From: Cephalotus follicularis
Taxonomy: Eukaryota > Streptophyta > Magnoliopsida > Oxalidales > Cephalotaceae
Direction: 5' to 3'
Length of the DNA stretch: 64,000 bases
NCBI GenBank assembly: GCA_001972305.1
Contig: BDDD01001379.1
Coordinates: 166,211-230,210, forward strand
Under the pieces are notes generated by a model, which worked only from the letters and a program-made list of their open reading frames with translations, did no database searches and was not told the DNA's origin. The translations under genes and the position numbers were made by a program. Shown here piece after piece: positions 28,903 through 64,000 of this stretch (position 1 is its first letter; the number at the start of each line of letters is the position of its first letter).

Positions 28903-28927
28903 TTAGCCGTTGTCCTCACTTGGCTAA
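28903..28927 (-). other. Conserved LTR hairpin in E 5' LTR
   Basis: TTAGCC/GGCTAA stem as in the 3' LTR copy; loop identical to that copy. Confidence 0.65.
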
Positions 28928-29805
28928 GTAGGAATAATGCATGAGAAAGAAAATATAAATGTAGACATGTATGACCGTTTATTTTGAAATAGCTGTATAA
29001 TTAAGTATTCCAATATTTATGAGCAATCATGCCAAGTGGCCTAGACAATACAATTCAAGAATACCGCACAAGGGTAAAATCAATCAATACAGTGGTTTGG
29101 GCGTCACATGTCGCTAACTCCTAGCACCAACTGCGCACCACCTAACTATCACCCTACACTTCAAAGATGATAGATCAGGACAATTCTGCCGGCATATAGC
29201 GGGCAGGTAACAGTTAAGATCTGCATTGTAGATAAGTTTGGTGGAAGCTCTAGCCAACTCCTGGCACATAGGACCACCTCGTAGGCAGTGATGTCTCCTA
29301 TCACTCGACTAATGGCAATAAGTATAGACAATCAATTCAATCAATTCAATAGCAATATTACATATTTCTATAATATGCAATATAGTAATAGTTTTCTTTT
29401 GAAACATTTAACAGCTCAGTGACCGTACCTCTATTTTGGAGGAAACAGTATTCAATACAGTAGTGGTACCTCTCAGGGGAGGAAAATCAGTAAATCATTT
29501 AACAGTAAGTTTTCATTTTCAAAACCATAGTGGAAAAACCATATTTGTGCTTATAGCAAAAATAGTGATTACATAAACATTAATAGTGGCAGTAGTAATA
29601 TTAACCGCATAGTATGAACAGTGATATTGTAAGGGTTAATGGAACAACAACAATACAATCCTCAATCGTTTATGCAATCAACTACTAAGATCTAAGTTGT
29701 TAATTCTTTATAATACGATTACACACGGCAGAGCTTGATTGTTGAGAACCAACCCCATGGAGTCCGGTGTAATTCTCACAGATTTAACCCAAACAGTGCC
29801 TTGAG

Positions 29806-29947
29806 CATCGACAGTTCTAGAGAAAGCGTCGATGGTTTCTAATCTAAGCGCCGTTCATGCTGCCTTAAGCGTCGAGGTTTAAGAACCAAAAGCACACCAT
29901 TTTAAGCTTAAAGCGTCGACGGTTGGAGATTAAGCGTCGACGCTTCT
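29806..29947. repeat. GTCGAC palindrome cluster, E 5' LTR downstream side
   Basis: Includes a perfect 14-base palindrome AAGCGTCGACGCTT at 29932-29945, identical to one in copia element K (56769-56782), plus AAGCGTCGACGGTT, AAGCGTCGATGGTTT and AAGCGTCGAGGTTT. Confidence 0.87.
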
Positions 29948-30899
29948 GGCATTTATACAAATTCCAGGAGCAACTACTCAAACAGAGCATGCATAAATTC
30001 ATTTCAATCCAGTCCAATACAGCATGCAATAATACGTCAACCATTACTACACATTGTACATGTTATATGTTCAAAAACATGTCAAAACCCCTACCTCAAT
30101 TGCTATCCTGAAATCAAATTGAATTGATTTCTCTCTTTATGTCCAATGTTCTTCACATCAACGCAATCTTCCCCAATTGCCAAAATTAATCTCTACGATT
30201 GCATGCTTACAGGTTTAGATACCAAAACCAGTATGTTTAACTAGTTATCTAACCATGATAACATCAAGAATTGAATCAAAAGCTTATAATGAATTTTCTA
30301 CGTTCCATTTCCATTTCCTAACTAAATCCAAAATTCAATCTCCAATTACATGCTTATTATTCATGATCATGTTAACAGTGGTATATATATCTAACATTAG
30401 TATGTCACATTACTAACAATATTAACATCGGTAACGAACTCGGATTGGTGACTTTCCAGGAAGAATCAAGCTTTAATTCCCCCTTTGAACTTTCCAACAT
30501 CAACATGCAACCTCCGTCAATTTCCCCTGCAACTGTCCAGATAGTTTCTCTATTTCTCAGTGTTTTCTAACACTCAAATAACTCATGTATCAACTGATAT
30601 AAAGGACTCAATTTCGTGTCTTTAATTCATCAGTTAGTCTAACTTTCATTGTGGACATTTCTCACTCCCTCATGCATGCCTTCACTCTTTGTTTCTTCCT
30701 CACATTTTCTACTGTGATTGTAGGTTTGCAGGTGTGCAGGGATGGAAAGCACATGCAAGGCACTTAGTCTGGCATTGCCAACAGCTGGTAACGTTTCCTT
30801 GCATGGCTGACACGTCCCTAGACACTTGGATTGTAAGGAAACCATTCTGGTGCCACTATCCTGTTCTAACAGATGCGTAACACAGTCCTGACACCATGC

Positions 30900-37665: not shown

Positions 37666-38058
37666 TGTCACACCCCGCTTGCATTAACAACATAAAACAT
37701 GGCAATTTAACAAATATCCAGCTTATACAGAGAGCGATAAAACTTAAAACTTTGATTAAACATCAAACTTCGCGGAAGCATTTAACTATAAGCTGAAAAC
37801 AAACAGAACTATGCGTCCCATACCACATGATTCCCACAACATCCACAGTAAAGCATTGTTAAAAAACCCACAAACGGAGCGTGATCCAAAAGTTGTACAT
37901 CAACAACAGTAAAACATTAGTACAAAACCGAAGTACAACATGTTTTAACACACTGCTTTACAACACACTTTGAACATAAAAACTCCGTCACTTCACTTTC
38001 TAATACAACCATGCCCGACGATATCCAAAACTCAACATAAATCTGCAACAGTAGGGGG

Positions 38059-38083
38059 TTAGCCTTTGTCCTCACTCGGCCAA
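38059..38083 (-). other. Conserved LTR hairpin in I 3' LTR (wobble variant)
   Basis: The sense strand reads TTGGCC, GAGTGAGGACAAA, GGCTAA: the stem closes in RNA with one G-U pair. The 5' LTR copy is 45064-45088. Confidence 0.65.
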
Positions 38084-38849
38084 AGTCATAAAAGCAACTT
38101 AAGATAAAAACAAAACCAAAGTATGAAAGCAACATGATGCAGTACATACTATATCTCGATGCATATACATATATAGATATACATATGCCAAACCACGTTG
38201 TCCCAATAATCACGGTATCACAATATCACAGTTCGCATTTCACGGTTCACAATCACGTCCCAAAAGGACTACACAAATCTCGATGGGTACGAAGAGCGTC
38301 GCCAACTCCTGGCCCCAACGTCGTACATCCCGTCATCGGCCCCGACTCCGGACGACAGAAAGCAGGTCACGATGCAGTGAGTCACCCAGCCAACTTCTGG
38401 CCCCTGAGTCAACCCGACCACTAGTCATCGCTGGCATCTCCGCCACGCAACTAGTACGATCACAATCACAATCACAAACAGAATTCACAGTCAAGCTCAA
38501 TCATAATCACAGTCATCTCAATGCTCAAAACAGTTTTCCAAGTAAATTATAAAACAATACTTGAAAACAAACTCATTTTCACGATGTCACGGTTCTCGGT
38601 TCACAATATCACAAAGCTCAATTCACGGTGTTTTGAAAGTCATTTTCATGGTTCGAAAATATATATTTTCTCAAAACATACATTTTCGTGTAAAGTAGTG
38701 ATCTATATAAATCAACAATGCACTTCCAGAAAGATGGTATAACAATTCACAATCAGTAATCACAATGTTTAAAACAGTTCATAAAGCTTCACCAAGCAAA
38801 TTATCACAATACACGATGCATAGACACGTTCACAAGGCAAAACAGGCCC

Positions 38850-39125
38850 TAACAGTCAGCTGTCTCTCACTGACAGTCGGATGTTCCCCTTAAACAGTCA
38901 GCTGCCCAACACTGGCAGTCGGCTACCCACACTAGACAGTCGGCTGTCACCCTTGACAGTCGGCTGCCCACCCACAACAGTCGGCTGCCGTCCTACAACA
39001 GTCGACTACACAAGCCTTCGCAGGCACCTCCCAGAAACACACATGGGCAGTCGACTGGCCTCCCAAGCACAGTCGGCTGGACCCATTAAACAGTCGACTG
39101 CCCAACCCAGACAGTCGGCTGGATT
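38850..39125. repeat. CAGTCGGCTG palindrome cluster, I 3' LTR downstream side
   Basis: About ten sites such as CAGTCAGCTGTC, CAGTCGGCTGTC, CAGTCGGCTGCC, CAGTCGACTAC, GGCAGTCGACTGG and CAGTCGGCTGG occur at ~20-30 base spacing. The equivalent in the 5' LTR is 45855-46085. Confidence 0.87.
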
Positions 39126-39629
39126 CTGCAGAAAATGCAGAAAACAGCAGCTACATCCCAACACAGGACAAGGATACCACAACACATTCCAGGCTCAAAA
39201 CACGACATAAACATGCATTGCATTTTATGAAAAACATTAACAGTTGAACTTAAGCACAAAAATGACTTCCCCCCTACCTTAGAACTCCAAGTTAGGAGCT
39301 GCAATCCACCTCTTTAAGTCCAAATCCGAGGCTTTTGCACTCCCCAACTCGTTTAGCAACTCCAACAGATTCGGTTCTTCCCATTGTCCAAGCTTCCAAG
39401 TCCACGGTTCAACACAAAACTCCTTGGATCAACAACACACACATTTTCCTCTCTTTTCTTCACTCTTTCAAACACTCTTTGAACCCTCTGAAGAAGATGA
39501 AGATTGAAGGAGAAACTTGTGTCTTTTATGGACAAAACCCGGCCCCCTCTCTTCTGCTGCCCATATAAAAACCAAACTCACCCACTTTTGTCACACCAGG
39601 CCTGACAGCACGTGTGCTGTCTGGCGCCT

Positions 39630-39765
39630 CGCAGTCCACTGCCTCGACTTGGCAGTCGGCTGTCTCTGCCGACACACGCCCAGCCGGCTGTTTCCTCAGA
39701 GCAGCTGGCTGGTTCCTTCACCAAGGGAGCCCAGTCGGCTGCCTCCCTATGGCATTCGGCTGCCC
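39630..39765. repeat. CAGTCGGCTG palindrome cluster, I 3' LTR upstream side
   Basis: GCAGTCCACTGCC, GGCAGTCGGCTGTC, CAGCCGGCTGTTTCC, CAGCTGGCTGG, CAGTCGGCTGCC. The 5' LTR copy is 46620-46755. Confidence 0.85.
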
Positions 39766-39905
39766 CCTGTTTCAAAACACACCAACACACTTTTCTTGCA
39801 ACTTTTCAACACACAAAAGAGGAAAAACACGATTCTCGTTAACTCAAGGTGTAAATTACATTGAAAATGCAACATTACACTTTAACGAAAACCCCGGGCG
39901 TTACA

Positions 39906-39920
39906 TCCACCCCTCATTCA
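39906..39920 (-). other. Polypurine tract of I
   Basis: TCCACCCCTCATTCA next to the LTR reads as a purine-rich TGAATGAGGGGTGGA in the sense direction. Confidence 0.8.
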
Positions 39921-39950
39921 AGGAATTTCGTCCATGAAATAAAGGGGGTA

Positions 39951-41064
39951 CTAGAACAAGTGAGAGTAACGCTCCCTCATCTCCTCTTCACGTTCCCAAG
40001 TTGATTCTTCAGCACGGTGAAACTGCCGCGGAACCTTCACCATAGGGATGGTTCGGTTCCTCAGCACTTGCGTCTTCCAATCCAGGATTCGCACAGGTAA
40101 CTCCTCGCAAGATAGGTGATCTCGCACAGGAACTGAAGTAAAATCTAGAACATGCAAAGGATCTCGGATATATCCCCTCAACATGGATACATGAAAGACG
40201 TCATGCACACCTGACAGTGCAAGAGGTAAAGCAAGCTGGTAAGACACCTCCCCAACCCTCTCCAAAACCTCAAAAGGACCGATGTAGCATGGAGCTAACT
40301 TGCCCTTTTCCCCAAACCTCTGAACGCCTTTCCACGGTGAAACCTTCAGGAACACGTGATCACCAACGTTGAAGGTTAAAGGTCTTCTCTTGACACTGTC
40401 AACATGACTTTTCTGCCAGCTCTGAGCAGCAAGCAGTTTCTCCTTTATAAACTTGACTTTCTCAGAAGTCTCCTCCACCAAGTCTGAGCCCAACAAAGGT
40501 TGCTCGCCAACCACGTCCCGAAACATAGGGGACCTACACTTCCTCCCATACAGAGCCTCAAACGGTGCCATGCCAATACTGGAATGATAGCTGTTATTAT
40601 ACGAAAACTCTATCAAGGGAATATGGTCCTCCCAAGTACCAGCAAAGTCAACAACACAAGCTCGGAGCATATCCTCCAGGGTCTGCATAGTACGCTCTGA
40701 CTGGCCATCCGTCTGTGGGTGAAAAGCTGTGCTCAGGTTCAGCTTCATCCCAAACGCTGTCTGAAACCTCTTCCAAAAGTTGGAAGTGAAGATCGAGTCT
40801 CTGTCACAGACTATACTCACAGGAACACCGTGTAGTCTCACTATCTCCTTTACATACAACCGAGCCAACTTGCTCGCAGAGTCAGAAACATGAGTAGGCA
40901 AAAAGTGAGCTGACTTCATGAGTCGATCCACTAGAACCCACACTGCATTATGGCGGTTTTGAGTCAAAGGAAAAACCGAAAGAAAATCCATCGTCACATG
41001 CTCCCACTTCCACTCTGGAATCGGTAGGGGCTGTAACAACCCTGCTGGCCTCTGATGCTCGACC
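39951..41064 (-). pseudogene. Element I integrase core, C-terminal domain and chromodomain
   Basis: The open frame 39951-41039 has [41 protein letters not shown], and the Glu of DGQSERTMQTLEDML, so the DDE acids are present. GPY/F-like APCYIGPFEVLERVGEVSYQLALP follows, then SMLRGYIRDPLHVLDF and a chromodomain-like NRTIPMVKVPRQFHRAEESTWEREEEMRERYSHLF. It is one frame off from the RT/RNase H because of a one-base change near 41095. Confidence 0.92.
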
Positions 41065-42678
41065 TTAACTACTTGGCAAGTATAACACTTCGCGACATAG
41101 TCTGGTGATCTCCCTCTTCATGCCGGACCACCAGTAGTTCCTTTTCAGATCTTGGTACATTTTAGTGCTACCAGGATGTATACTGTACTGAGACTTATGT
41201 GCTGCAAACAATAACTCACTCCTTATCCAAGCATCATTAGGAACGCACACTCGTCCCTTAAACCTCAGAACACCATCCGTATGCAACTGAAACTCAGACT
41301 CTGGACCCAGATTCTCTCGAATCTCAAGCAACTCAGGATCACGCAGCTGTGCATCCTTTATGTGGTCCAGTAGCGCTGGCTGTGCACGAACACTTGCAAC
41401 AAGGATCCCCGGTGCCCTACAAAAAGGCGACCATTTCTGGAAGTCCTCTAACAACTTCCACTGAGACACCACAGCGTTGGCAACCATGGCTTTACGGCTT
41501 AGGGCATCCGCGACAACGTTAGCCTTCCCTAGATGGTACTGAATACTGCAGTCGTAGTCATTAAAGAACTCAACCCAACAACGCTGCCTCATATTCAGAT
41601 CATCCTGACTGAACAAGTACTTCAGGCTCTTGTGATTGGTATAGATCTCAAACTGTGCTCCATATAGGTAATGCCTCCATTTCTGAAGAGCAAAAACGAT
41701 AGCTGCCAGCTCGAGATCATGAGTCGGATAGTTCTCCTCGTAAGGCTTCAGCTTCCGCGAAGCATAAGCGATCACCCTGCCTCGTTGCATCAACACGCAA
41801 CCCAGGCCCTTGCCCGAAGCATCAATGTACACTGTAAAGCCCTCATTACCCTCAGGTAATGCCAAAATAGGAGCAGAGATCAGCTGATCCTTCAGATCAC
41901 AGAAACTGGTTTCACAGTCATCATCCCAAACAAACAAGGTCTTCTTCTGAGTCAGCCTTGTCAAAGGTACAGCTATCCTTGAGAAGTTCTGGATGAACCT
42001 CCGGTAATATCCCGCCAAGCCAAGGAAACTACGTACCTCTGTCACATTTTTCGGACGTGGCCAATCTCGTACTACCTCAGTCTTCGACGGATCCACCGCC
42101 AAACCTTCTCCAGACACGATATGACCCAGGAAGATCACATGGTCAAGCCAGAACTCACACTTGCCAAACTTAGCATACAACTTACGCTCTCGGAGAGTCT
42201 GTAAAACTGACCTCAGATGATAGACGTGCTCTTCCTCACTCTTTGAGAACACCAGTATATCATCTATAAACACCACCACAAACTGATCCAGATACGGTCG
42301 GGACACGTCGTTCATCAGGGACATGAAGGCTGCTGGTGCGTTGCTGACACCAAACGGCATTACCAAGAACTCATAGTGACCATACCTCGTTCGGAAAGCA
42401 GTCTTCTCTACATCTCCTTCCTTCACCCTCAGCTGGTGATAACCCGACTTCAGATCGAGTTTGGAAAACACTCTCGACCCTTGCAGCTGGTCAAACAAAT
42501 CCTCGATATGTGGAAGAGGATATTTGTTCTTGATAGTCACCTTGTTAAACATCCTGTAGTCGATACAAAGCCTCATCGACCCATCCTTCTTCTTCACAAA
42601 GAGCACTAGCGCACCCCACGGAGAAACACTGGGTCGCACAAAACCCTTATCTATTAAGTCTTGCAAATGTAGCTTCAA
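41065..42678 (-). pseudogene. Element I reverse transcriptase, RNase H and integrase zinc finger, open over 537 codons
   Basis: RT motifs: [53 protein letters not shown], catalytic [14 protein letters not shown]. Connection [29 protein letters not shown] has the Gln that is a stop in C and E. RNase [48 protein letters not shown] (a D-to-N change in TDHKSL). The H2C2 finger starts [20 protein letters not shown], then the frame shifts. Confidence 0.93.
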
Positions 42679-43137
42679 CTCTCACAACTCCACAGGAGCC
42701 ATACGATAAGGCGCCTTAGAAATAGGAGCCGTACCCGGTGCCAGATCGATTACAAACTCCATACTCCTCTTCGGTGGTAAGGACACTAGATCTAGAGGAA
42801 ACACATATGGAAACTCACTTACAACAGGAACCTCCTCCAGACTCTTGCCTTTCTCTTTCCTTTTATCAACCACATGCGCAAGGAACCCTTCGCACCCCTT
42901 TTCCAGATACCTCGATGCACGAATAAAAGATATAATCGCCATCGAGAACCCTCGGTCTCCCTGGAACTAGAAGGTAGTCCCATCAGGTAAGCAAAGATCC
43001 ACCACCTTGTTGTAACAGTCCAGCTTTGCACGGTAGGCTGACAACCAGTCCATACCCAAGATAACATCAAAGTCATAAAGGGGTAGCACGATCAAGTCTG
43101 CACACAACAAAACACCTGCAACAGAAAGCTCACAACC
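42679..43137 (-). pseudogene. Element I protease C-terminal half and linker
   Basis: The same frame as neighbouring pieces, with stops where relatives have Arg or Gln. [27 protein letters not shown] is readable across 43000-43100. The open part 42682-42942 covers [22 protein letters not shown] and [42 protein letters not shown]. It ends at TGA where C has Arg. Confidence 0.83.
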
Positions 43138-43668
43138 TCAGTACATCGAGTCTGCAGACAAAGAACCTCCAGAAGGTGTACTCACATCAAGAACAAAAGG
43201 CATGCAAACAGGAGACACATCCAAACATGATGCAAAACGGGAAGCAACAAAAGAATGTGATGCTCCTGAATCCATCAAAGCTCTGGTAGAGAAACCATAA
43301 ACATACCCAGTACCTCCCACAATAGAAGTAGACTCTGGAACCTCTGTCTGGGTGAGAACAAAAACTCTACCTTTCACTATGCCTTTGCTGGTATCTCTTC
43401 GCTGTGACGGTCCTGCTGCAGAAGCACTACCACTAGTTGGCCCAGTGGGTACTGCCGCCCTTCCTCTCGGGCAATCCTTCACGGAATGCCCCGCTGTGCC
43501 ACACCTCAAACACAACCCTTTCTTTTCCCAACAGTCTTTCTGTTGGTGACCTACACGACCACAGTGAAAGCAAACCCCAGTCCTCGCATCACCCCCCTGA
43601 CTAGGAGCACCCTGTGAAGCTGTCTGTTGAGACCTATTCATCGGGGACTTCGACGGGGAACCACTGCC
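43138..43668 (-). pseudogene. Element I nucleocapsid knuckles and protease active site
   Basis: The open part is 43138-43641. Knuckles are CFHCGRVGHQQKDC and CLRCGTAGHSVKDC. The conserved [27 protein letters not shown] leads into protease [15 protein letters not shown]. The frame ends at a TGA after SMY (Arg in relatives). A TAG near 43670 (Gln) separates it from gag. Confidence 0.88.
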
Positions 43669-44559
43669 CTACCACTTTGACGATGTTGGTCTCGACTGAT
43701 TCTGTGTCTGCCTGCTCTGCTGTGCTCGGGCTCTCTCGGCCATGTCCTCATTCAACACACTCTCCAACAACCTTGCTTTCTGGGTAACCTCCACAAAGGT
43801 ACCAAGCTCCATCACTCTGATCCAAGACAGAAGGTTCGGTCGCAAGCCCTTCAGGAACCTCCGAACCTCCTTTTCCTCATCTGCCACCAAGTAAGCTGAG
43901 TGTCTGGCAAGCTCCACAAACCTGGCCTGGTACTCGGCCACAGTCATCTCCCCCTGACGTAGCTCCAATAACTCTGTCTCTCTCCGCTCACGCTCTATGC
44001 GTGGCACATACGCTGCCAGAAACTCCTCCTGGAACCCCTCTCAGGTGCCAACAACTCTGGTATCCTCCCATTTAGCTTTGACCATCTCCCACCAGTGAGT
44101 GGCCTCTCCCCACAAATGGTACACAACAAACCTCAGTTTCTGCCTGTCAGTACACTCCATTACCTCAAAGATCTTCTCAAGATCCTGCAACCACCTCTCA
44201 GCGGTGGTAGCATCCAACTCTCCCCTAAAACTGGGTGGATTCTATCTCATGAACCTCTCAAGGTTTCTGCCAAACCGGCTACCATCATCATGTACACCCT
44301 GAGCATGAGCCATCGGCTGAGGCTGAGCTTGGACATATAACCTCCGCATCTCCTCCATGTTTGCTGCATTAGCGGCCATCTGTTGCTGGTTAGCGGCTAT
44401 CTGCTGCTGGATGTAGTCAATGATGCGGTCCATCAGATCCCTCATATTATGTGTCGCCCCCTGTGGAACATCATTCATTGGTTGTCCCCCAAGATTCACA
44501 TCCTCGGGAACATCCTCATTCACGGTCCTACGCCTTCCGCGCCTTCTCTGACCGTCCAT
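43669..44559 (-). pseudogene. Element I gag
   Basis: The ATG at 44559 gives MDGQRRRGRRRTVNEDV, about 100 bases from the primer site. A helical QQQIAANQQQMAANAANMEEMRRLY segment precedes the gag domain. A TAG at about 44242 (Gln in FMRQNPP) and a TGA near 44040 (Trp in WEGFQ) interrupt it. The last part, 43669-44007, is open with [34 protein letters not shown]. Confidence 0.9.
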
Positions 44560-44654
44560 CTTGTTCCTATAAGAAAGTTGTCATTAGTCATCTTGAGGAA
44601 ACATGTTATTTGCCAAGGATAGTATCCAAGCTAAGCATATAAAAATGGATATAT

Positions 44655-44666
44655 GCTCTGATACCA
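44655..44666 (-). other. Primer-binding site of I (initiator Met-tRNA)
   Basis: GCTCTGATACCA on the plus strand, four bases from the 5' LTR. Confidence 0.92.
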
Positions 44667-45854
44667 CTGCTGTCACACCCCGCTTGCATTAACAACATAA
44701 AACATGGCAATTTAACAAATATCCAGCTTACACAGAGAGCGATAAAACTTAAAACTTTGATTAAACATCAAACTTCGTGGAAGCATTTAACTATAAACTG
44801 AAAACCAACAGAACCATGCGTCCCATACCACATGATTCCCAAAACATCCACAGTAAAGCATTGTTAAAAAGCCCACAAACGGAGCGTGATCCAAAAGTTG
44901 TACATCAACAACAGTAAAACATTAGTACAAAACCGAAGTACAACATGTTTTAACACACTGCTTTACAACACACTTTGAACATAAAAACTCCGTCACTTCA
45001 CTTTCTAATACAACCATGCCCGACGATATCCAAAACGCAGCATCAATCTGCAACAGTAGGGGGTTAGCCTTTGTCCTCACTCGGCCAAAGTCATAAAAGC
45101 AACTTAAGATCAAAACAAAACCAAAGTATGAAAGCAACATGATGCAGTACATACTATATCTCGATGCATATACATATATAGATATACATATGCCAAACCA
45201 TGATGTCACAATAATCACGGTATCACAATATCACAGTCCCAATTTCATGGTTCACAATCACGTCCCAAAAGGACTACACAAATCTCGATGGGTACGAAGA
45301 GCGTCGCCAACTCCTGGCCCCAACGTCGTACATCCCGTCATTGGCCCTGACTCCGGACGGCACGAAGCAGGTCATGATGCAGTGAGTCACCCAGCCAACT
45401 CCTGGCCCCTGAGTCAACCCGACCACTAGTCATCGCTGACATCTCCGCCATGCAACTAGTACGGTCACAATAACAATCATAAACAGCAATCACAGTCAAG
45501 CTCAATCACAATCACAGTCATCTCGATGCTCAAAACAGTTTTCCAAGTAATTTATAAAACAATACTTGAAAACAAACTCATTTTCACGATGTCACAGTTC
45601 TCGGTTCACAATATCACAAAGCTCAATTCACGGTGTTTTGGAAGTCATTTTCACGGTTCAAAAATATATATTTTCTCAAAACATACATTTTCGTGTAAAG
45701 TAGTGATCTATATAAATAACCAATGCACTTCCAGAAAGATGGTATAACAATTCACAATCAGTAATCACAATGTTTAAAATAGTTCATAAAGCTTCACCAA
45801 GCAAATTATCACAATACACGATGCATAGACACGTTCACAAGGCAAAACAGGCCC

Positions 45855-46085
45855 TAACAGTCGGCTGTCTCTCACTGACAGTCGGTTGTTCCCCTTAAAA
45901 CAGCCGGCTGCCCAACACTAGGCAGTCGGCTATCACCCTTGACAGTCGGCTGCCGACCTACAACAGTTGACTACACAGGCCTCCGCAGGCACCTCCCAGA
46001 AACACACATGCGCAGTCGACTGGCCTCCCAAGCACAGTCGGCTGGACCCATTAAACAGTCGGCTGCCCAACATGGGCAGTCCGTT
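45855..46085. repeat. CAGTCGGCTG palindrome cluster, I 5' LTR downstream side
   Basis: CAGTCGGCTGTC, CAGCCGGCTGCC, CAGTCGGCTATC, CAGTTGACTAC, CAGTCGACTGG, CAGTCGGCTGG and others. Some differ from the 3' LTR copies, and one or two units present there (around 38960-38985) are missing here. Confidence 0.86.
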
Positions 46086-46619
46086 GGATTCTGTAGAAAA
46101 TGCAGAAAACATCAGCTACACAAGGCCACAACACACACCAAACCCCTCCCAACACAGGAAAAGGATACCACAACACATTCCAGGCTCAAAACACAACATA
46201 AATATGCATTGCATTTTATGAAAAACATTAACAGTTGAACTTAAGTACAAAAATGACTTTCCCCCTACCTTAGAACTCCAAGTTAGGAGCTGCAATTCAC
46301 CTCTTTAAGTCCAAATCCGAGGCTTTTGCATTCCCCAACTCGTCCAGCAACTCCAACAGATCCGGTTCTTCCCATTGTCCAAGCTTCCAAGTCCACGGTT
46401 CAACACAAAACTCCTTGGATCAACAACACACACACTTTTCTCTCTTTTCTTCACTGTTTCAAACACTCTTTGAACCCTCTGAAGAAGATGAAGATTGAAG
46501 GAGAAACTTGTGTCTTTTATGGAGAAAACCCGGCCCCCTCTCTTCTACTGCCCATATAAAAGCCAAACTCACCCACTTTTGTCACACCAGGCCTGACAAC
46601 ACGTGTGCTGTCTGGCGCC

Positions 46620-46755
46620 TGGCAGTCGACTGCCTCAACTTGGCAGTCGGCTGTCTCTGCCGACACACACCCAGTCGACTGTTTCCTCACAGCAGCTGGC
46701 TAGTTCCTTCACCAAGGGAGCCCAGTCGGCTGCCTCCATGTGGTAGTCAGCTGCC
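46620..46755. repeat. CAGTCGACTG palindrome cluster, I 5' LTR upstream side
   Basis: GGCAGTCGACTGCC (perfect palindrome), GGCAGTCGGCTGTC, CAGTCGACTGTTTCC, CAGCTGGCTAG, CAGTCGGCTGCC. Confidence 0.86.
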
Positions 46756-47149
46756 CCCTGTTTCAAAATACACCAACACACTTTTCTTGCAACTTTTCAA
46801 CACACAAAAGAGGAAAAACACGATTCTCGTTAACTCAAGGTGTAAATTACATTTAAAATGCAACATTCCACTTAAACGAAAACCCCGGGCGTTACACCCT
46901 TTTTGGGGAAACACTTAAAACATTTCTGTAAAACACTTGAACAATAGTATTTATGTGAAATACTTTGTACAATACCAATAAATGGTGCATATAGCACTCA
47001 GTTGTTGAAATCCTTGAAATCACTTTAGACAATAGTATTTGAGAATACTTGATAGATATAATCATCTATAACAATAACAGTATGCACTTCAAGGTTCAAC
47101 AATATCAAATAGTACATTAAATAATCACTTATTCATAAAAGTACAGATT

Positions 47150-55417: not shown

Positions 55418-57637
55418 TGTTAGATATAGTGACTCGACAAGCCATTGGATGGGCTATCATATTATATCCTGTCTTGTATGAAACAATCTTATTCCTTATA
55501 TATATGATGCGTGCTAATTTGTTATGACTATATCACTTGTGTTTTGTCACTTAATTGAAGTAGTTTATCATTTACCTACTTACACTTTGATGCCCTGACA
55601 TAAGGTTGGATGCCTAGCATGGAGGCTGTGAGATTGGTTACCTTATTCCTTACGTCAAATTAGTTCCAAGTCATAGGTTCACTTTGTGGGCATTAGTGAA
55701 CCGGATAGACTTGCGCGTATGTTGCCTGCTCATGGAATTGGAGGATGGATTCTCTCACAACCATCTGTGTTGGACACTAGGGCAAATACGGGGTGCGCGC
55801 TGGGAGTGTGTACACTGAACTGGACCTGCGTAGGAGACACTATTTGGACAGTCGCTATTCTCATGTTGGTAGTGACTCCTACTTATTGCGGTTGTGTATA
55901 AGTGATGATCACTTAGCGAGTTCTTAAACTCGTCTGATCCTTAGACCTGAGCGACTGCTCTATTGTATGGAGACAGATATGCTTTGATCTCCACCTTACC
56001 CAGTCCTTGCGCAGTGACTGGAAATCAGTTGGTATTTGGGTATGATCAAAGCTATACAACTATAAGTGAGTGGGCAATATGGGATTCTCACACCTGAGCA
56101 AAGGTGATCAGCTCAATTATGATCTGATTATACTTTGGACTTATGAAATCCTTGGCCAAGGTTGAGGTAGACTAGCATTTAGATTTCAGGAGAGTTTACC
56201 AAAGGTCCTAGTAATGATCAGATATTCTAGTCATTGAGGTTTTATCTAGGGTTGACACATATCCTTACCTTAGACCTCAATCGAGGCCAAGCATGACAAA
56301 GGATTATAGTACACGTGAACCGACGACTTAGAAAATCTAGGGTTAAAGAGGTACGTAATAAATTATGGAAAAATTAATTAGATTAATTTTTCCATCTAGA
56401 TAATATTAGATATTATTTCGATAGCATTTAAATTGGTCAAGAACCATTTAGAATGGCTAAACCGAACCCTAGGGGTATTTCAGTAATTTATGAACACCTC
56501 TGATTTTAATCAAGATTTTAAAGGGTCCCTGCCTAATAATGATTAGTTCTTTAATATGTTGGACATATTAAGTCTTGGTGTCAAATATCGATTATATGGA
56601 TTTTACATTTCGTGGTAACACATTTGTTTGATCTTACCTAATCAATATTAGAAGGGATTAAATAAGTCGGACTTATACTCAAAATGCTTTGTATAACAGT
56701 CAAAGCGTCGATGCCTTATGGGAAAGCGTCGACGCATTCCTTTAGACAAAGCGTCGACGCCTTCTGGGAAGCGTCGACGCTTAAGGCTTACATAGCGTTG
56801 ATGACTTTTAGAAAGACGTCGACGTTTAGTGCCATGTAATGCATAAGCATCGACGCTGTTGTTGAAAGCGTCGACACTTAGCGCAGGTTTTGCAGCCTCT
56901 GCACTAACTCACTTCGTGGGCACGTTTTCTCTCTCGTCTCCAGCAGTTTTCTCCCATCATTGCACGTTATGGAAACGTGGGGATCATGGCTACATACTCC
57001 TTGGGAGTGAGGACCATGATCCCATGTTTATGGGATAGTGGGAGAGTGGGCTGGCGAGAAGCTTTTATTGCAGAAAAGTTTCTAGTTTTTATGAGGGAAT
57101 TTTGCTGGGCAAAACGAGATATAGAATTCTCTCTGCACATAGAGTTTTCCTTCATCTACAAACACCAAGCTAGTAACTTATCTAGGGTAGATTGTTTTTT
57201 ATTGTATTAATCAAACTCAATTTTCCTTTTATAAGTTTTGAGAGAGAAAGAGAGAGTGCATAAGGAAACTGCTTTGTTTCTTCCTTCTGGTGTGCATCTG
57301 TAGGGAGCAGTAGCTGAACGTTTTGGAGGGCAATAAAGAAGGAGTCTTCGCAAGCTAGTAGCGGCAAAGACAAAGGAGCTAACACCCGCTGGTGTATCTC
57401 CTTGTCTCCCTCTCTTATTGCCTTGCTTGTATGTCATCATTGAATGCAATGGTGACATCTTTTTCAATTAATGTGTTGATGTGGTGGTCCATGTGGTCTG
57501 TGGTCATGCCATAATGGACTGTTTTTGCCTTTGTTGGGTGTTCTTCCATTGTTATGATTGTATGTTTAAGTTTTGTTCTACACCCTACATACCTTAGTCC
57601 ATTTATGGTATAGGAATTGGTTAATTCGATTCCTTCA
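55418..57637 (+). repeat. 5' LTR of K (2.2 kb)
   Basis: TGTTAGATATAGTGAC to CGATTCCTTCA. A TATA-like CTTATATATATG lies near 55496-55506. A palindrome cluster is at 56700-56890. The rest, including ~55600-56690 and 56900-57637, has no gene; short open frames are not conserved. Confidence 0.9.
56700..56890. repeat. GTCGAC palindrome cluster in K LTR (copia)
   Basis: AAGCGTCGATGCC, AAAGCGTCGACGCATT, AAAGCGTCGACGCC, a perfect AAGCGTCGACGCTT (56769-56782), AGCGTTGATGACTTTT, AAGACGTCGACGTTT, AAGCATCGACGC and AAAGCGTCGACACTT. Confidence 0.88.
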
Positions 57638-57638
57638 G

Positions 57639-57650
57639 TGGTATCAGAGC
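57639..57650 (+). other. Primer-binding site of K (initiator Met-tRNA)
   Basis: TGGTATCAGAGC, one base after the LTR end. Confidence 0.93.
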
Positions 57651-57956
57651 GTCCCACATCATCCTTAATTGAATTTTATGCTATGAATGATGTACTATTT
57701 TTAAGGTTTAATTAGAGGATGTGTTGTTTGTTGTTAAACTAATTTTCAAAGTGCCTTAATGACTTTTATATGAAATTGGATTTCTTTGTTCATTAATCTT
57801 GGAGATCATGTTAAAATGAGTTTTGAACATGTTATGGAAACCTACATAGTGTAGTTTAAGGCTGTATATTGTCTGGTTATGACTGAATTGCAAAATGCCT
57901 TCTGTTTAAACTAAGTTCCTACAATTTTGGAATTGCAGAAACTGTCCAAGGGGCTT

Positions 57957-58112
57957 AAGCGTCGACGCGTGTTGTTTAAGTGTCGACGCTTGTGTCACTG
58001 GGTTGTTACTGCATCGACGCCTTGGCATAGCGTCGACGCTTATTTGATTTTTATATTTTTTTTACGCCTTAGAGGTAAGCATCGACGCCTTCTGGGAAGC
58101 GTCAACATTTTA
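57957..58112. repeat. GTCGAC palindrome cluster in K leader
   Basis: AAGCGTCGACGCG, AAGTGTCGACGCTTG, GCATCGACGCC, AGCGTCGACGCTTA, AAGCATCGACGCC and AAGCGTCAACATTTT. It lies outside the LTR, downstream of the primer site. Confidence 0.86.
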
Positions 58113-58845
58113 GCTAAAGTTTTTTTTTAAAAAAATTCTGTTTTTAAGAAAATTGGATTTTATAAATTGTGGCACTTAGAAAAGTAAAATCATTGCTTGA
58201 TTTAGTGGGAGTTTAACCAAAATTAACAGTCCTCAAATTAAATTTTGTAATTGGTTATCATTTATGGTTTTTATAATGTTGTGTTTAATTATATTGGATA
58301 TAATTTAAGTCTTATGCACAATGGATGGCCCGAAAAGGACTTAGACGTAGTTTATGGTTTTCTTTGTGTGGATGGTTATTTATTTATTTATTATATTTAA
58401 TGGTCTGTAATAAGGTGCCTGCGTGCACCATTTATTTTTCCTTTTCTTTTGTAAATGGAGACCTTGCAAGGAGAGTTGGAGGAAGGGAGAAATGGAGTAC
58501 AAGACTTTTGAAGGCCATGTATGCATGGTATTTAATGTAATAGAATAAATTTTATATCCTTACACCTAGGAAGACCTAATAGTGTCTTTGGGATCAAGTC
58601 ACTACTATTAATGTCCTTGCAAATCCATTGACATATTTTAGAAATATGTCCAAGGTGCATAAGATACACGTCTTGCATGCTAAGCCGTAATTAATTGGAA
58701 TTGGCTAATACAACCAATGAATTAATTAATGGCTCGGTAATTAAAATATGAAACCGCAAATTCCCTCACCTTAATAATAAGTCTTAACATAGGAACCCAT
58801 GGAGTGGTTCCCCGTGGCCTTCCACAATTTTCGTTTAGTAGTGTT

Positions 58846-58893
58846 CCTGGGTTGTTGGTTTGTCATGCCCTAGCTGAGGCTGATAACTTGAGG
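58846..58893 (+). other. Leader hairpin 1 of K
   Basis: The inner stem GTTGTTGG (58851-58858) pairs with CTGATAAC (58880-58887) through Watson-Crick and G-U pairs, and outer pairs extend it. The 21-base loop (58859-58879) starts TTTGTCATG and ends CTGAGG. Confidence 0.6.
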
Positions 58894-59017
58894 ATATTAT
58901 GTCAACGTCGGTGTTGGGCACCGCAAAGGGTGGCTACGTTTCAGCACTTGGACACCCCTACGTGTGGCTGTTAAAACTAATGCATTCCAATGAAAATTGT
59001 GGGTACATGACTTATCA

Positions 59018-59063
59018 AGATTCTGATGGTTTGTCATGCCCTAGCTGAGACCATATTGAATCT
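59018..59063 (+). other. Leader hairpin 2 of K
   Basis: ATGG (59026-59029) pairs with CCAT (59051-59054) and AGATTC (59018-59023) pairs with GAATCT (59058-59063), with a small internal loop between. Loop 59030-59050 differs from hairpin 1 only in its last base. Confidence 0.62.
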
Positions 59064-59120
59064 GAGGCCGAATACTATGGTTGGATCTTGTATTAGATAC
59101 AAATTGGCTAGAAAGCCTAC

Positions 59121-59179
59121 CCATTGGTTATATTATAGTTTGTCATGCCCTAGCTGAGGCTATAATATAATTGCGATGG
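59121..59179 (+). other. Leader hairpin 3 of K
   Basis: TTATATTATAG (59128-59138) and CTATAATATAA (59160-59170) form a perfect 11-base stem, extended by G-U pairs and an outer CCAT/ATGG. Loop 59139-59159 is identical to hairpin 1. Confidence 0.68.
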
Positions 59180-59352
59180 ATTCCAATCCCCACTAGGAAG
59201 TTAGACTTCTCGAGTTCCATATGGGGGTATGGGATACGATTAGAATAGTGGGAGGAACCATAAGCACTAAAGACCAAGTGTTATGGTTGTCATATATTAA
59301 AATTGGAATAAATGCTAACTCATGTTTATATTTACTTATCTAGGTTACTAGT

Positions 59353-59848
59353 ATGGCTTTATCAAATGCAATGTCCCATATACTTGAGACAAACATACTT
59401 AAGGGGCCCAACTTCAACGATTGGCACCGTAACCTCAAGATCATCCGTACGGCCAATAAAATGGCCTATGCTATGATTGGGGGGCCTTATTCACTGGGTG
59501 AAGATCCGACGCCCGAAAAGAGTGAGTGACTAGCCAAATGGCTAGAAGATGACGAGCAGGCTAGATGTCTTGCCCTTCTTGGGATGACACATGAGCTTCA
59601 GCGTCAGAATGAGAAGATTGAGACCTTATCTGCTATACTACTCCACCTCCAGGAGATGTATGGAGCTGAGTCTAGGACTCAAAGGTTCAATCTATCGCGC
59701 AAACTCTTTAAGGCGCAGATGCAAGAGAGAGCTTCAGTCCATGAGCATGGATTGAAGATGATAGACATGATTGAGCAGCTGGCTCAATTAGGATTTGTCA
59801 TGGGCCACGATCTTATTTTGACATCGTTCCTAAGTCGTTCTCACAGTT
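59353..59848 (+). pseudogene. Element K gag, N-terminal part
   Basis: The ATG at 59353 gives MALSNAMSHILETNILKGPNFNDWHRNLKI, a typical copia gag start with the aromatic W of the N-terminal motif. A TGA at 59527-59529 (probably CGA, Arg) interrupts it. 59584-59856 is open in the same frame: HELQRQNEKIETLSAILLHLQEMYG. A frameshift near 59830 moves reading to the next piece. Confidence 0.87.
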
Positions 59849-59849
59849 T

Positions 59850-61277
59850 TTGGTGAATTTTTACATGAACAAGATAGAAGTACCTCTATCTAAGCTGATA
59901 GCTATGTTGAGGACGGCTGAGGCCGATTTTGACTCTGGGAAGTCAAAGACCCACTCCCTACTTCTTCCTTCTTCTAGGTCTACCCAAGGAAAGGGCAATG
60001 CCTCGTCTTCCTCTAAAGGGAAGGGCGTGCTCATGCCTGTCAACACAAAAGTCAAGGGTAAGAAGAAGCATAAGAAGAAGAAGGGGAAGCTTGGAGCTAG
60101 TGAGAATGTTGCCAAATATCGGATGAAGAAGTTAATTGCTGAGGGTGCTTGTTTCCAGTGCGGTAAGACCGGTCACTGGAAAAAGGATTGTCATGTTGTT
60201 GTTACTGCAGTCTCTGCTGATAACCCACATGGTGCGCGTACATCAGGTATGTTCATGATTGAACTTAATCCAGCTTTGAATAGTAGTTCTTCATGGGTAT
60301 TAGATACTGGATGTGGAACTAACCTTTGCAATTCATTGCAGGGACTAAGAAAAGTTAGAAAGCTTGGAGCAGGAAACCTGGACTTGAGGCTTGGTGATGG
60401 ATCTAGGATCATTGCTCAAGCTGTTGGAATTTGTGATATTAATTTATGTAATGGTTATGTATTGACTTGGGATCCATGCTACTTTGTTATGAATATTGTA
60501 AGGAATATTATAAGTGTTTCTCACTTATGTGGTTTGGGCTTGGAGCTTAAATTCCAAGACATTGGATGTTTTATATATTCGAACAATGTTTGTGTTGGTA
60601 ATGGTGTTATCAGCAATGTATTATATGTCTTAAATACTTCACAATCAAATATCTTGTCCATTGAGCAAAGTAATAATAAGAAAACACAAAGAGAAACTGA
60701 GCTAAATAAAACCTATACTCGGCATTGTAGACTTGGTCATCTTAGTGATGCTAGGCTATCACAGTTGGTTAAGGATGATCTCCTTGATATCCAGGACTTA
60801 GAGTCCTATCCAACTTGTGAATCCTGTGTATTGGGAAAGATGACCAAATCACCCTTCTCTGGTCAAGGAGAAAGGGCTATGGACTTACTGGGCTTGGTCC
60901 ATAATGACGTATGTGGTCCTATGTCAGTCAGTGCGCAAGGTGGTTATATCTACTTCATAACCTTTACCGATGATTTGTCTAGGTATGGTTATGTGTATCT
61001 GATGAAACACAAGTCAGAATCCTTTGAGAAATTTAAAGAGTTCAGACTTGAAGTAGAAAAACAAACAGGTAAGTCAATTAAAATACTTCGGTCGGACCGA
61101 GGTGGCGAATACTTGTCAGCTGAATTCCTAGGTTATCTTAGAGTTAACGGAATTCTATCTCAATGGACTCCTCCTGGAACACCACAGCATAATGGTGTAT
61201 CCGAAAGGAGGAATCGGACTTTGCTAGACATTGTACGATCGATGATGTCTTTTACTGACCTTCCTACCTATCTCTAG
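59850..61277 (+). pseudogene. Element K gag C-terminus, zinc knuckle, protease and integrase, open over 475 codons
   Basis: VNFYMNKIEVPLSKLIAMLRTAE ends the gag domain. A Lys-rich stretch precedes the knuckle CFQCGKTGHWKKDC. Protease: SSWVLDTGCGTNLCNS. The pre-integrase finger is RHCRLGHLSDARLSQL ... CESCVLGKMTKSPF. Integrase core: VHNDVCGPMSV, FTDDLSRYGYVYLMKHKSE, ILRSDRGGEYLS and the Glu of NGVSERRNRTLLD, so the catalytic acids are present. It stops at TAG 61275-61277 after TDLPTYL (usually Trp in this motif). Confidence 0.92.
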
Positions 61278-62081
61278 GGTTATTCCCTAGATACAACTGC
61301 TTATATCTTGAATCAGATTCATTCAAAATATGTGCCTTCTACTCCATACCAGGTATGGTAAGGGAGGAAACCCAGCCTGAGCCATTTTAAGGTTTGGGGC
61401 TGTTCGGCTTATGTAAAGAGGCTTGACGTGGATAAGATGGAAGCGCGGTCTGACCGTTGCAGGTTTGTGGGGTATCCTAAAGAAACTAAATGATACTACT
61501 TCTACCACCATAGCGAACAAAAGATATTTGTTTCGCGAAATGCTGTGTTCCTAGAGAAGGAATACCTTCTTGAAGGAAACAGTGGGAGTAAGATGGAACT
61601 CAAGGAGTTGCCACAGGTAGAAACCACACAGGAGATGGAGGAGTTGGAGGTTAGACCTTCTACAGACATAGCTGAGATTGGATCTTAGGCTGAGAATGGT
61701 TCTCAGTTAGGCAGAGCTCATTTGAGGAGATCAGGTATAATCCCATTAGCACCTGAGAGGTATGGTTTCCTCATTGATGGTACTGATGAGATAAACGTCA
61801 TTGATGATGATGAGCCTGCCAGCTATCTAGAGGCGGTGCAAGGTACTGAATCTGAAGCATGACTAGGAGCCATGAAATTCGAAATGGATTCCATGTACTC
61901 CAACCAAGTATGGAATTTGGTTGAAGCACCCGAAGGCATAGTGCCTATTGGCTGCAAGTGGATCTTAAAGGAGAAGATGAATGCAGGTGGAAAAATCAAG
62001 ACTTATAAAGCTCAATTAGTGGCGAAAGGGCATAGGCAATGACATGGAGTCGACTATACTCAAACTTTCTCACCTGTCGCC
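61278..62081 (+). pseudogene. Element K integrase C-terminus and start of RT, many stops
   Basis: Same frame as both neighbours, with about six stops. Readable stretches are GYSLDTTAYILNQIHSK, HFKVWGCSAYVKR, RFVGYPKETK, an acidic spacer, then GIIPLAPERYGFLIDGTDEI and RT start AMKFEMDSMYSNQVWNLVEAPEG, GCKWILKEKMNAGGKIKTYKAQLVAKGHRQ. The TGA after HRQ stands where other copia elements have an aromatic or Lys residue. Confidence 0.82.
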
Positions 62082-63413
62082 ATGCTTAAATCCATTAGGA
62101 TTTTGCTTGCTATTGCCGCTCATTATGATTATGAGATATGGCAAATGGATGTCAAGAAGACATTCTCAAATGGGCGTCTTGAAGAGGTTATTTATATGTC
62201 CCAACCCGAGGGGTTTACATCTTCTGAGCACCCGCACATGGTGTGCAAGCTCGAACGGTCCATCTATGGACTAAAGCAAGCATCTCGTAGCTGGAATCTA
62301 CGTTTTGATGAAGCAGTCAAAGATTTTGACTTCGTTAAAATTGTAGATGAGCCCTGTGTTTATCGAAAGCAAGAGGGACCTAGTATCACATTCTTAGTGC
62401 TATATGTAGATGACATCCTACTCATTGGGAATGATGTAGGGATGTTGCAGTCTGCAAAGATATGGCTAACTAAGAATTTTTCCATGAAGGATTTGGGAGA
62501 AGCCACCTATATACTAGGTATTAGGATCTTCAGGGATATTTCCAATAGGTTGCTTGGCCTTTCCCAAAGCCAGTACATCAGCAAGGTGCTAAAGAGGTTT
62601 AGCATGGAGAATTCCAAGAGAGACCTATTACCAATAGGCGAAGGAATTCATCTTTCTCGAAAGATGTCTCCTCAGACATCTAAAGAGAGAGCACTAATGA
62701 GTCGGATACCTTATGCTTCGGCAGTAGGGTCGATCATGTATGCCATGCTATGTACTAGGCTTGATGTCACACTTGCCCTGGGTATGGTGAGTCGGTTTCA
62801 GTCTGATCCCAGTGAGAAGCACTGGGAAGTGGTCAAGGGAATCCTGAAGTACCTTAGGCGGACGCAGGATATGTTATTGATCTATGGAAAAGATAGTGAG
62901 CTGAAATTGGAGGGCTTTACAGACTCCAGTCTTAATAGTGATCCGGATGATCACAAATCTGTCTATGGGTACGTTTTTGTACTTAATGGTGGAACTGTGA
63001 ACTGGTGCAGTTCAAAGCAAGGGACTATTGCAGATTCTACCATAGAAGCCGAGTACATAGCAGCCTCAGATGCCGCCAAGGAGGGTGTATGGATGTGCAA
63101 GTTCATTACTGAACTAGGAGTTGTTCCTTATATTATTAGTCCAGTTGTTATATACTGTGATAATAATGGGGATGTAGCACAAGCCAAGAAACCGCGGTCT
63201 CACCAGCGATCCAATCACATCGAGCGGCACTATCATTTGATCCTAGAGATTATTGGTAGGGGAGATATACAGCTTGAGAGGGTCTCCTCAGAGGAGAACA
63301 CAACAGATCCACTAACCAAGGCAATGGGCGCCAAGGCTCTGGAGCATCATCGTGGGACGATGGGTCTAGGCTATAGGAGTTCATGGCTTGAAGGTCAAGT
63401 GGGAGATTGTTAG
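62082..63413 (+). pseudogene. Element K reverse transcriptase and RNase H, open over 443 codons
   Basis: RT: MLKSIRILLAIAAHYDYEIWQMDVKKTFSNG, MSQPEGFTS, CKLERSIYGLKQASRSWNLRFD and the catalytic LVLYVDDILLIGND. The DVKTAFLNG motif reads DVKKTFSNG. RNase H: LEGFTDSSLNSDPDDHKSVYGYVFVLNGG, DSTIEAEYIAASDAAKEGVW, YCDNNGDVAQAKKP and HIERHYHLILEIIGRGDI, with catalytic acids kept. The stop lies six bases into the 3' LTR. Confidence 0.92.
63396..63407 (+). other. Polypurine tract of K
   Basis: CAAGTGGGAGAT, immediately before TGTTAGATATAG. Confidence 0.82.
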
Positions 63414-64000
63414 ATATAGTGACCCAACAAGCCATTGGCTGGGCTGTCATATTATATCATGTCTTGTATGAAACAATCTTATTCCTTATATATATGATGC
63501 GTGCTAATTTGTTATGGCTATATCACTTGTGTTTTATCACTTAATTGAAGTAGTTTATCATTTACCTTCTTACACTTGTGATGTCCTGACATAAGGTTGG
63601 ATGCCTCGCATGGAGGCTGTGAGATTGGTTACCTTATTCCTTATGTCAAATTAGTTCCAAGTCATAGGTTCACTTTATGGGCATTAGTGAACCGGATAGA
63701 CTTGCGCGTATGTTCCCTGCTCATGGAATTGGAGGATGGATTCTCTCACTACCATATGTGTTGGACACTAGGGAAAATACGGGGTGTGTGCTGGGACCAT
63801 GTACACTGAACTGGACCCACGTAGGAGACACTATTTGGACAGTCAGTATTCTCGTGTCAGTAGTGACTCCTACTTGTTGCGGTTGTGTATAAGTGATGAT
63901 CACTTAGCGAGTTCTTGAACTCGTCTGATCCTTAGACCTGAGCGACTGCTCTATATTGTATGGACACGGTTATGCTTTGATCTCCACCTTACCCAGTCCT
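63408..64000 (+). repeat. 3' LTR of K, truncated by window end
   Basis: It matches 55418 onward with scattered differences (GACCCAACAAG for GACTCGACAAG, GGCTGGG for GGATGGG). The palindrome cluster would lie beyond the window. Confidence 0.93.

What the first reader, a model, noticed from the sequence alone, without database searches (positions are those of the whole stretch)
58846..59179. Three leader hairpins with an invariant 21-nt loop and different, fully complementary stems
Loops 58859-58879, 59030-59050 and 59139-59159 are the same 21 bases except one terminal base. The stems have no common sequence: GTTGTTGG/CTGATAAC, AGATTC..ATGG/CCAT..GAATCT and TTATATTATAG/CTATAATATAA. Each closes with G-C directly beside the loop. 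Unlike stems around a constant loop are what selection on RNA structure produces. The loop contains CCTAGCTGAGG with self-complementary CTAG and AGCT, so loop-loop pairing is conceivable. Possible roles: genome dimerisation or packaging, Gag binding, or translation control. I do not recognise it as a described element.
Basis: partly seen in the sequence, partly recalled or inferred. Interest (0 to 1): 0.85.

Follow-up and report, generated by a model that had tools for sequence, protein, structure and literature searches.

The report
Repeated CCUA hairpins in retrotransposon leader
A very abundant plant jumping gene carries, just before its first gene, an array of four RNA hairpins with different stems but the same tip, kept paired by evolution, which probably marks its RNA for packing into its own particles.

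Summary
Window 55418-64000 is a copia-type LTR retrotransposon (3' LTR cut by the window end). Its leader holds three hairpins with the same 21-nt core; family copies show a fourth (58928-58988), decayed in the window copy. The host genome (1.58 Gb) has 9,011 core matches (<=2 mismatches) and 1,386 exact fourth-hairpin cores.

In 60 aligned sequences the named pairs form in 95.9% of cells (33-41% with partners slid); 82 cells changed on both sides (shuffled mean 30, 0/500 reach 82). Stem changes on inner tree branches mostly keep pairing (31 vs 7), on tips half do (101 vs 104). 22% of cells are G-U, so the sense RNA is the selected molecule. The 'open 21-nt loop' is wrong: it holds a 5-bp helix with a CCUA tetraloop. 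One inner pair changed from C-G to U-A (exact counts C-G 4306, U-A 446, U-G 51, C-A 232).

Shared unit: variable stem, two U-G pairs, 2-nt bulge, 5-bp helix, CCUA. Structure is well supported; function is inferred. Best guess (0.45): multivalent packaging signal bound by Gag. Rivals: nuclear export, translation control, dimerisation. No plant genome but the host's could be searched.

The parts
55418..57637 (+). 5' LTR (TG...CA, 2220 bp) of a copia-type LTR retrotransposon
   Evidence: 55418-56007 matches 63408-64000 at 93.9%; TG/CA ends read from sequence
57639..57650 (+). primer binding site TGGTATCAGAGC (initiator tRNA-Met type; tRNA identity recalled)
58822..59002 (+). closing helix P1, arms 58822-58832 and 58992-59002, encloses hairpins 1 and 4; 58833-58836/58988-58991 can also pair here, but RNAalifold gives those bases to hairpins 1 and 4
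   Evidence: 95.9% paired over 14 pairs in 60 sequences, 36-51% when slid; pair 58829-58995 U-A 41, U-G 14, C-G 5; RNAalifold
58833..58906 (+). hairpin 1; core 58859-58879; CCUA tetraloop 58869-58872
   Evidence: 1386 exact cores in the genome
59018..59063 (+). hairpin 2; core 59030-59050; CCUA 59040-59043
   Evidence: stem pair 59018-59063 A-U 36, U-A 16, unpaired 8; core pair 6-18 C-G 41, U-A 19 (most of the U-A rows were fetched by that core)
59121..59179 (+). hairpin 3; core 59139-59159; CCUA 59149-59152
   Evidence: pair 59137-59161 A-U 30, G-C 27; core replaced by a hairpin-4-type core in L096 and L111
59180..59235 (+). further long hairpin (23 bp) after the array, without CCUA tetraloop
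   Evidence: RNAalifold of 60 sequences
59315..59343 (+). possible 3' splice site: CTRAC branch-point-like motif, T-rich tract, AG|G, just before the gag ATG at 59353
   Evidence: best acceptor in a consensus scan; column counts in 43-47 copies; splicing not shown
59353..61277 (+). gag (start codon 59353, a stop at 59527-59529) and the region up to integrase; CCHC knuckle in the ORF 59850-61277
   Evidence: PF14223, PF00098, PF22936, PF13976, PF00665; stop
62082..63413 (+). reverse transcriptase ORF (RVT_2), ending 6 nt inside the 3' LTR, which starts at 63408
   Evidence: PF07727; LTR

Best explanation
The leader of this copia-type element contains a folded RNA region (about 58813-59238) presenting four copies of one recognition unit: outer stem of free sequence, two U-G pairs, a 2-nt 5' bulge (UG or GG), a 5-bp inner helix and a CCUA tetraloop. 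Shown: the hairpins, their pairing on the sense RNA, compensatory change, and replacement of one core by another in two copies. Inferred: the units are multivalent binding sites for the element's own Gag (a CCHC knuckle is encoded), so that full-length RNA is selected for packing into particles, possibly only unspliced RNA if the acceptor-like site before gag is used.
For: Structure: 95.9% of 4105 cells paired vs 33-41% slid, 82 double-change cells vs 30 shuffled, 0/500; inner branches 31 pairing-keeping vs 7 pairing-breaking changes, tips 101 vs 104, Fisher p 3e-4; exact core counts C-G 4306, U-A 446, U-G 51, C-A 232, so 2.7 U-A expected by independence; sense strand 95.9% paired, antisense 75.6%. 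Unit: hairpin 4 shares tetraloop, U-G pairs and bulge but not the inner helix; in L096 and L111 hairpin 3 carries a hairpin-4-type core. A separate sample of 20 copies anchored on hairpin 4 gives 92.4% paired vs 34-44% slid (P1 included, the anchored core left out). Function: place between PBS and gag; least diverged part of the leader, and less than the gag start; CCHC knuckle. Analogy: GACG tetraloops in retroviral packaging (PMC516450, passages), Ty1 5' domain (PMC5454406, abstract and outline).
Against: No protein-binding or packaging data. Two of five measures do not exceed shuffles (pairs with a two-sided change 9 vs 7.5; pair types 61 vs 60.3). Shuffle z-scores are as strong for other leader stretches (58150-58590: -9.2; 58360-58800: -6.8) and not nil in gag (-4.5), so structure is not confined to the array. 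In the 20 copies not chosen by the loop, the loops are no more conserved than nearby spacers (loop 1 0.040 vs 0.041; loops 2 and 3 0.144 and 0.151 vs 0.154). Micro-conversion between cores could have copied the U-A change from one hairpin to another, so core changes may count as few events. No amplified deletion derivative keeping the array without gag was found; the one junction tested (L062) is unique. A review says plant LTR elements generally lack introns (PMC12786077, passages), which weighs against the splicing part.
Confidence: 0.45

Rival explanations
1. Nuclear export element: the array binds a host export factor so that full-length, unspliced RNA leaves the nucleus, as retroviral CTE or murine RTE/MTE elements do.
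For: Repeated identical binding units fit a CTE-like design (recalled). A review notes that a structured CaMV leader recruits TREX and that export of plant LTR-element RNA has not been studied directly (PMC12786077, passages). Possible splice acceptor just before gag.
Against: No donor established: the best donor-like site (58075) lies where only about 13 of 60 copies align and is imperfectly kept. Splicing is not shown.
Confidence: 0.17
2. Translation control: the long structured leader acts as an internal ribosome entry site or shunt structure that brings ribosomes to gag past the upstream ATGs.
For: 57638-59352 is about 1.7 kb and holds 49 ATGs; consensus folding finds helices across 58180-59240. 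Each 21-nt core reads ATG CCC TAG (sequence).
Against: Hairpin 4 has the same architecture but no ATG or stop in its core, so the mini-ORF is not the conserved feature. If the acceptor-like site is used, spliced gag mRNA would lack the array.
Confidence: 0.18
3. Dimer linkage: apical loops kiss between two genomic RNAs.
For: CTAG in the cores of hairpins 1-3 is self-complementary; a model for Ty1 uses kissing loops to start dimerisation (PMC5454406, abstract).
Against: Only 4 nt; hairpin 4 lacks CTAG while keeping CCUA; L096 and L111 replaced a CTAG core by a core without it.
Confidence: 0.1
4. DNA-level feature (cruciform, protein site or inserted inverted repeats) without a role as RNA.
For: Cores and arms are inverted repeats; repeats are common in LTR elements (recalled).
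Against: 21.7% of cells are G-U, which is no standard pair in DNA or on the antisense strand (95.9% vs 75.6%); stem variants shared by three or more copies keep pairing in 31 of 42 cases, rarer ones in 30 of 123.
Confidence: 0.04

Closest known systems
GACG-tetraloop packaging hairpins of alpha- and gammaretroviruses
   Same: Leader hairpins with a shared tetraloop, involved in packaging (PMC516450, passages).
   Different: Tetraloop CCUA instead of GACG; four units, with U-G pairs and a 2-nt bulge; plant copia element; no packaging or dimerisation data.
Ty1 TIPIRT domain (yeast)
   Same: Structured 5' RNA of an LTR retrotransposon of the Ty1/copia type (kinship recalled) with cis signals for packaging and dimerisation (PMC5454406, abstract).
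   Different: Ty1 has a pseudoknot and two hairpins with complementary 7-nt motifs; here four units share one tip. No sequence relation tested.
BARE leader packaging and dimerisation signals (barley copia)
   Same: Plant copia element; [quoted passage not shown]
   Different: The words 'hairpin' and 'stem' have no occurrence in that paper's main text, so no structure could be compared.
CTE / RTE / MTE RNA export elements
   Same: Structured cis elements that export full-length retroelement RNA (RTE and MTE: PMC12786077, passages; CTE recalled).
   Different: No export factor, no splicing shown here; sequences not compared.
Conserved non-coding motifs of Sireviruses
   Same: Copia elements with conserved non-coding motifs (PMC2829016, passages).
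   Different: Those are PPT copies, LTR repeats, TATA box, integrase signal and PBS junction; 'hairpin' has no occurrence in the main text. This element's junction is CA/GTGG-TATCAGAGC, not CA/ATTGG-TATCAGAGC.

Membership tests
Copia-type (Pseudoviridae) LTR retrotransposon | LTRs, tRNA-Met PBS, copia gag, integrase before reverse transcriptase | tested here: met
Sirevirus | 5' junction CA/ATTGG followed by TATCAGAGC (six elements have G as second base of the spacer) | tested here: not met
   window has CA/GTGG-TATCAGAGC against PMC2829016 (passages); one copy looked at
Retroviral-type packaging signal (psi) | structured RNA between PBS and gag | tested here: met
Retroviral-type packaging signal (psi) | needed for, and sufficient to direct, packaging by Gag | not testable with these tools
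   needs binding and particle assays
Retroviral-type packaging signal (psi) | absent from spliced RNA | tested here: inconclusive
   acceptor-like site at 59343; 24 genome hits with a base other than T before AG|GTTGCTAG, 16 of 24 fetched, 16 of 16 with unspliced sequence upstream, so no spliced genomic copy seen
GACG tetraloop hairpins | GACG apical loops | tested here: not met
   tetraloop is CCUA
Kissing-loop dimer initiation site | self-complementary apical loop shared by the units | tested here: not met
   hairpin 4 lacks CTAG
Rfam RNA families | match at curated threshold in the leader | tested here: not met
   only hit in the window is snoR71 at 15779-15885
CTE/RTE-type export element | exports unspliced RNA through host factors | not testable with these tools
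   no RNA data

The most novel reading that the evidence does not exclude
A modular, multivalent RNA code in a plant retrotransposon: interchangeable CCUA hairpin cassettes, spread and homogenised within the leader by micro-conversion (as L096 and L111 suggest), that together form a packaging signal read by Gag. It would be a packaging signal of a design not met in the papers seen here.
Probability: 0.3. Interest if true: 0.75.

Novelty: new variant of a known kind. Interest (0 to 1): 0.6.

Why it matters
How plant LTR retrotransposons tell genomic RNA from messenger RNA is little known: a 2025 review says that export of their RNA has not been studied directly in plants, and describes separate RNA pools for translation and packaging in BARE (PMC12786077, passages). 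A compact, covariation-supported motif with over a thousand exact copies in one genome gives a defined target for binding and probing experiments, and shows that the copies of an abundant repeat family can serve as a natural mutagenesis set for RNA structure.

Tried and rejected
U3 complement: GCATGACAAAGG at 56291-56302 in the LTR is complementary to TTTGTCATGC of the loop. Of 20 LTR pieces fetched, 10 gave a match; 2 of the 10 read GCATGACAAGGG, none has the window's CAAAGG, and L075 (partner of the U-A copy L063) shows no matching change. Rejected.

Mini-ORF ATG-CCC-TAG as the conserved feature: rejected because the core of hairpin 4 lacks it.

Kissing through CTAG: disfavoured for the same reason.

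Relatives elsewhere: no exact 20-mer in viral contigs or genome contigs; five 16-mer hits in viral contigs have flanks unlike this element by eye; the RT query found no relative in viral contigs; a 102-aa conceptual frame across the array found nothing at E<=0.01. Metagenome contigs could not be searched. Papers: (listings) showed none describing this motif; four papers were seen in passages and one as abstract and outline.

Spliced genomic copies: none in 16 of 24 candidate junctions. Amplified deletion derivative: the L062 junction occurs once; the other junctions are untested.

Single-sequence folding energy and alifold z-scores were not specific enough to be used as proof.

Sampling limits: L014-L073 were picked by an exact core, L094-L113 by the U-A core, so anchored cores cannot break; cores unlike the fetch pattern give C-G 63, U-A 14, C-A 7, U-G 2, U-C 1 of 87. 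From 81 sequences (80 loci and the window), 21 were dropped for incomplete regions before alignment. An earlier alignment kept 42 of the first 60 copies.

Full report
What it is. The finding lies in the leader of a copia-type LTR retrotransposon. The 5' LTR is 55418-57637, the primer binding site starts at 57639, gag starts at 59353, and the 3' LTR begins at 63408 and runs out of the window; the LTR stretches are 93.9% identical. Domains are gag, zinc knuckle, integrase and RVT_2 in copia order; gag carries a stop at 59527-59529, so this copy is broken. The host genome G000 has 1,577,397,061 bases in 9,746 contigs and holds 4500+4511 matches of the 20-mer core with up to two mismatches (reversed control 1+4).

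Checking the observation. Three exact cores are present, none expected. Arms are complementary as described, apart from G-U pairs in stem 1 and an internal loop in stem 2. The odd A in loop 2 is rare in the family: 48 of 51 copies have G, 2 A, 1 T.

A fourth hairpin. I fetched 60 leader regions and 20 more chosen by the core variant TTTGTTATGCCCTAGCTAAG. The alignment of 60 sequences (59 copies and the window; 21 of 81 dropped as incomplete) shows between hairpins 1 and 2 a further hairpin, GTTTTAGCAC-TTGG-ACACG-CCTA-CGTGT-GG-GTGTTAAAAC. The window copy differs from it at 58942, 58956 and 58968, each time breaking a pair, which explains why it was missed. Its exact core occurs 1,386 times in the genome, close to a third of the 4,306 exact cores of hairpins 1-3. 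CCTA tetraloops start at 58869, 58957, 59040 and 59149.

Evidence for RNA structure. For 69 named pairs in the 60 sequences, 95.9% of 4,105 cells are standard pairs; with partners slid by 1-3 columns 33.3-41.3%. Because the structure was drawn from these sequences, the slid figure is a lenient control. Double-change cells: 82 against a shuffled mean of 30 (0 of 500). Two other measures are not above shuffles: pairs with a change on both sides 9 against 7.5 (120 of 500) and pair types 61 against 60.3 (211 of 500). Clear compensated pairs: 59137-59161 A-U 30 / G-C 27; 59018-59063 A-U 36 / U-A 16 (8 unpaired); core pair 6-18 of hairpin 2 C-G 41 / U-A 19. On a tree built from spacers only, inner-branch changes kept pairing 31 times (9 double), broke it 7 times and restored it 6 times; tip changes kept it 101 times, broke it 104 times and restored it 9 times; Fisher p 3e-4 for kept against broken. 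This is what selection in active elements followed by neutral decay of inserted copies gives. G-U cells make up 21.7%; read on the antisense strand only 75.6% of cells would pair.

The core is not an open loop. Genome-wide exact counts for pair 6-18 are C-G 4306, U-A 446, U-G 51, C-A 232; independence predicts 2.7 U-A. The tool calls counts for repeats lower bounds. The U-A form is seen in hairpins 2 and 3, not in hairpin 1, among the 60 aligned sequences. Because the 20 copies were chosen by that form, I also counted only cores unlike the fetch pattern: C-G 63, U-A 14, C-A 7, U-G 2, U-C 1. In L096 and L111 the whole core of hairpin 3 is a hairpin-4-type core. This points to exchange of cores between hairpins, and it also means that the U-A change may have been copied rather than arisen twice.

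Larger fold. RNAalifold of the 60 sequences gives a region 58813-59238 in which helix P1 (58822-58832/58992-59002) encloses hairpins 1 and 4, followed by hairpins 2 and 3 and a further 23-bp hairpin. The stretch 58900-59300 is the least diverged of the leader: 0.03-0.06 per 50-base bin, against 0.05-0.12 at 58150-58800, 0.10-0.20 at 57600-58150 and 0.09-0.13 in the first gag bins; these copies were chosen by a core in that stretch, which biases this a little. Column-shuffle z-scores are -6.9 and -7.8 for the array but -9.2 and -6.8 for upstream leader stretches and -4.5 for the gag start, so they do not single out the array.

An independent sample. Twenty copies chosen by hairpin 4 alone give 92.4% paired cells against 33.5-43.5% slid; some appear truncated downstream. 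In them the loops diverge as much as spacers (loop 1 0.040, next spacer 0.041; loops 2 and 3 0.144 and 0.151, spacer 59070-59120 0.154), and CCTA is exact in 15 of 20 for each of hairpins 1-3. Within this family the loop is thus not visibly slower than its surroundings; the argument rests on repetition inside the element and on compensatory change.

How it may work. The constant part is the tip: CCUA, inner helix, 2-nt bulge, two U-G pairs; the stems only need to pair. Several copies of such a unit in a leader fit multivalent recognition by a protein (inference). The nearest candidate is the element's Gag with its CCHC knuckle. A good acceptor-like site (CTRAC, T-rich tract, TCTAG|G at 59343) lies just before the gag ATG; its branch-point-like motif varies mainly at the R. 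If used, the array would be intronic and mark unspliced RNA; a review says, however, that plant LTR elements generally lack introns (PMC12786077, passages). I looked for genomic copies of a spliced form: 24 candidate junctions, 16 fetched, 16 of 16 with unspliced sequence upstream. This fits either no splicing or no packaging of spliced RNA and decides nothing.

Relation to known systems. It works like retroviral leader hairpins with a shared tetraloop, but it is not a member: the tetraloop differs and packaging is untested. It is not a Sirevirus by its PBS junction. Rfam has no match in the leader at its curated thresholds. No paper found here describes it; that search covers open-licence papers only.

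Limits. One plant genome; no other plant collection could be searched; no RNA data. Structure: near certain (about 0.95). Packaging by Gag: 0.45.

Noticed in passing
window 56726, 56751, 56771, 57959, 58030, 29934: Palindrome GCGTCGACGC recurs in the LTR and after the PBS of this element and once at 29934, inside an LTR-like repeat of another element; the inner CGTCGACG occurs 19 times in the window.
   Followed up: no
window 58180-58815: The leader upstream of the array also folds into a large consensus structure with double changes in some helices (26 cells at 58287-58305, 17 at 58578-58606, 10 at 58630-58650).
   Followed up: partly
window 56365-56395: A 31-nt palindrome (90% self-complementary) in the LTR.
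   Followed up: no
L019, L027, L033, L045, L052, L062: Internally deleted copies whose junctions fall inside the array; by their continuation they jump to other parts of the element (LTR, RT, integrase or protease region, judged by eye). The L062 junction is unique in the genome.
   Followed up: partly
L096 and L111, hairpin 3: Core replaced by a hairpin-4-type core, suggesting micro-conversion or template switching between hairpins.
   Followed up: partly
L029, oriented position 11: A core with the 5' arm of hairpin 1 sits about 1.6 kb upstream of hairpin 2 and has an unrelated right flank, as if hairpin 1 were split by an insertion.
   Followed up: no
window 18309-30837 and 37666-46899: Further pairs of 2.2-kb LTR-like repeats (95% and 93% alike); a descriptor scan of both strands of the window found this hairpin type only at hairpins 1 and 3 (4/2 internal loop, outer stem of at least 5).
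   Followed up: partly
window 15779-15885, minus strand: Rfam snoR71 match, 47.1 bits.
   Followed up: no
P0029 and P0120: Copia-like proteins listed under Acinetobacter baumannii and Clostridioides difficile, probably plant DNA contamination of those records.
   Followed up: no
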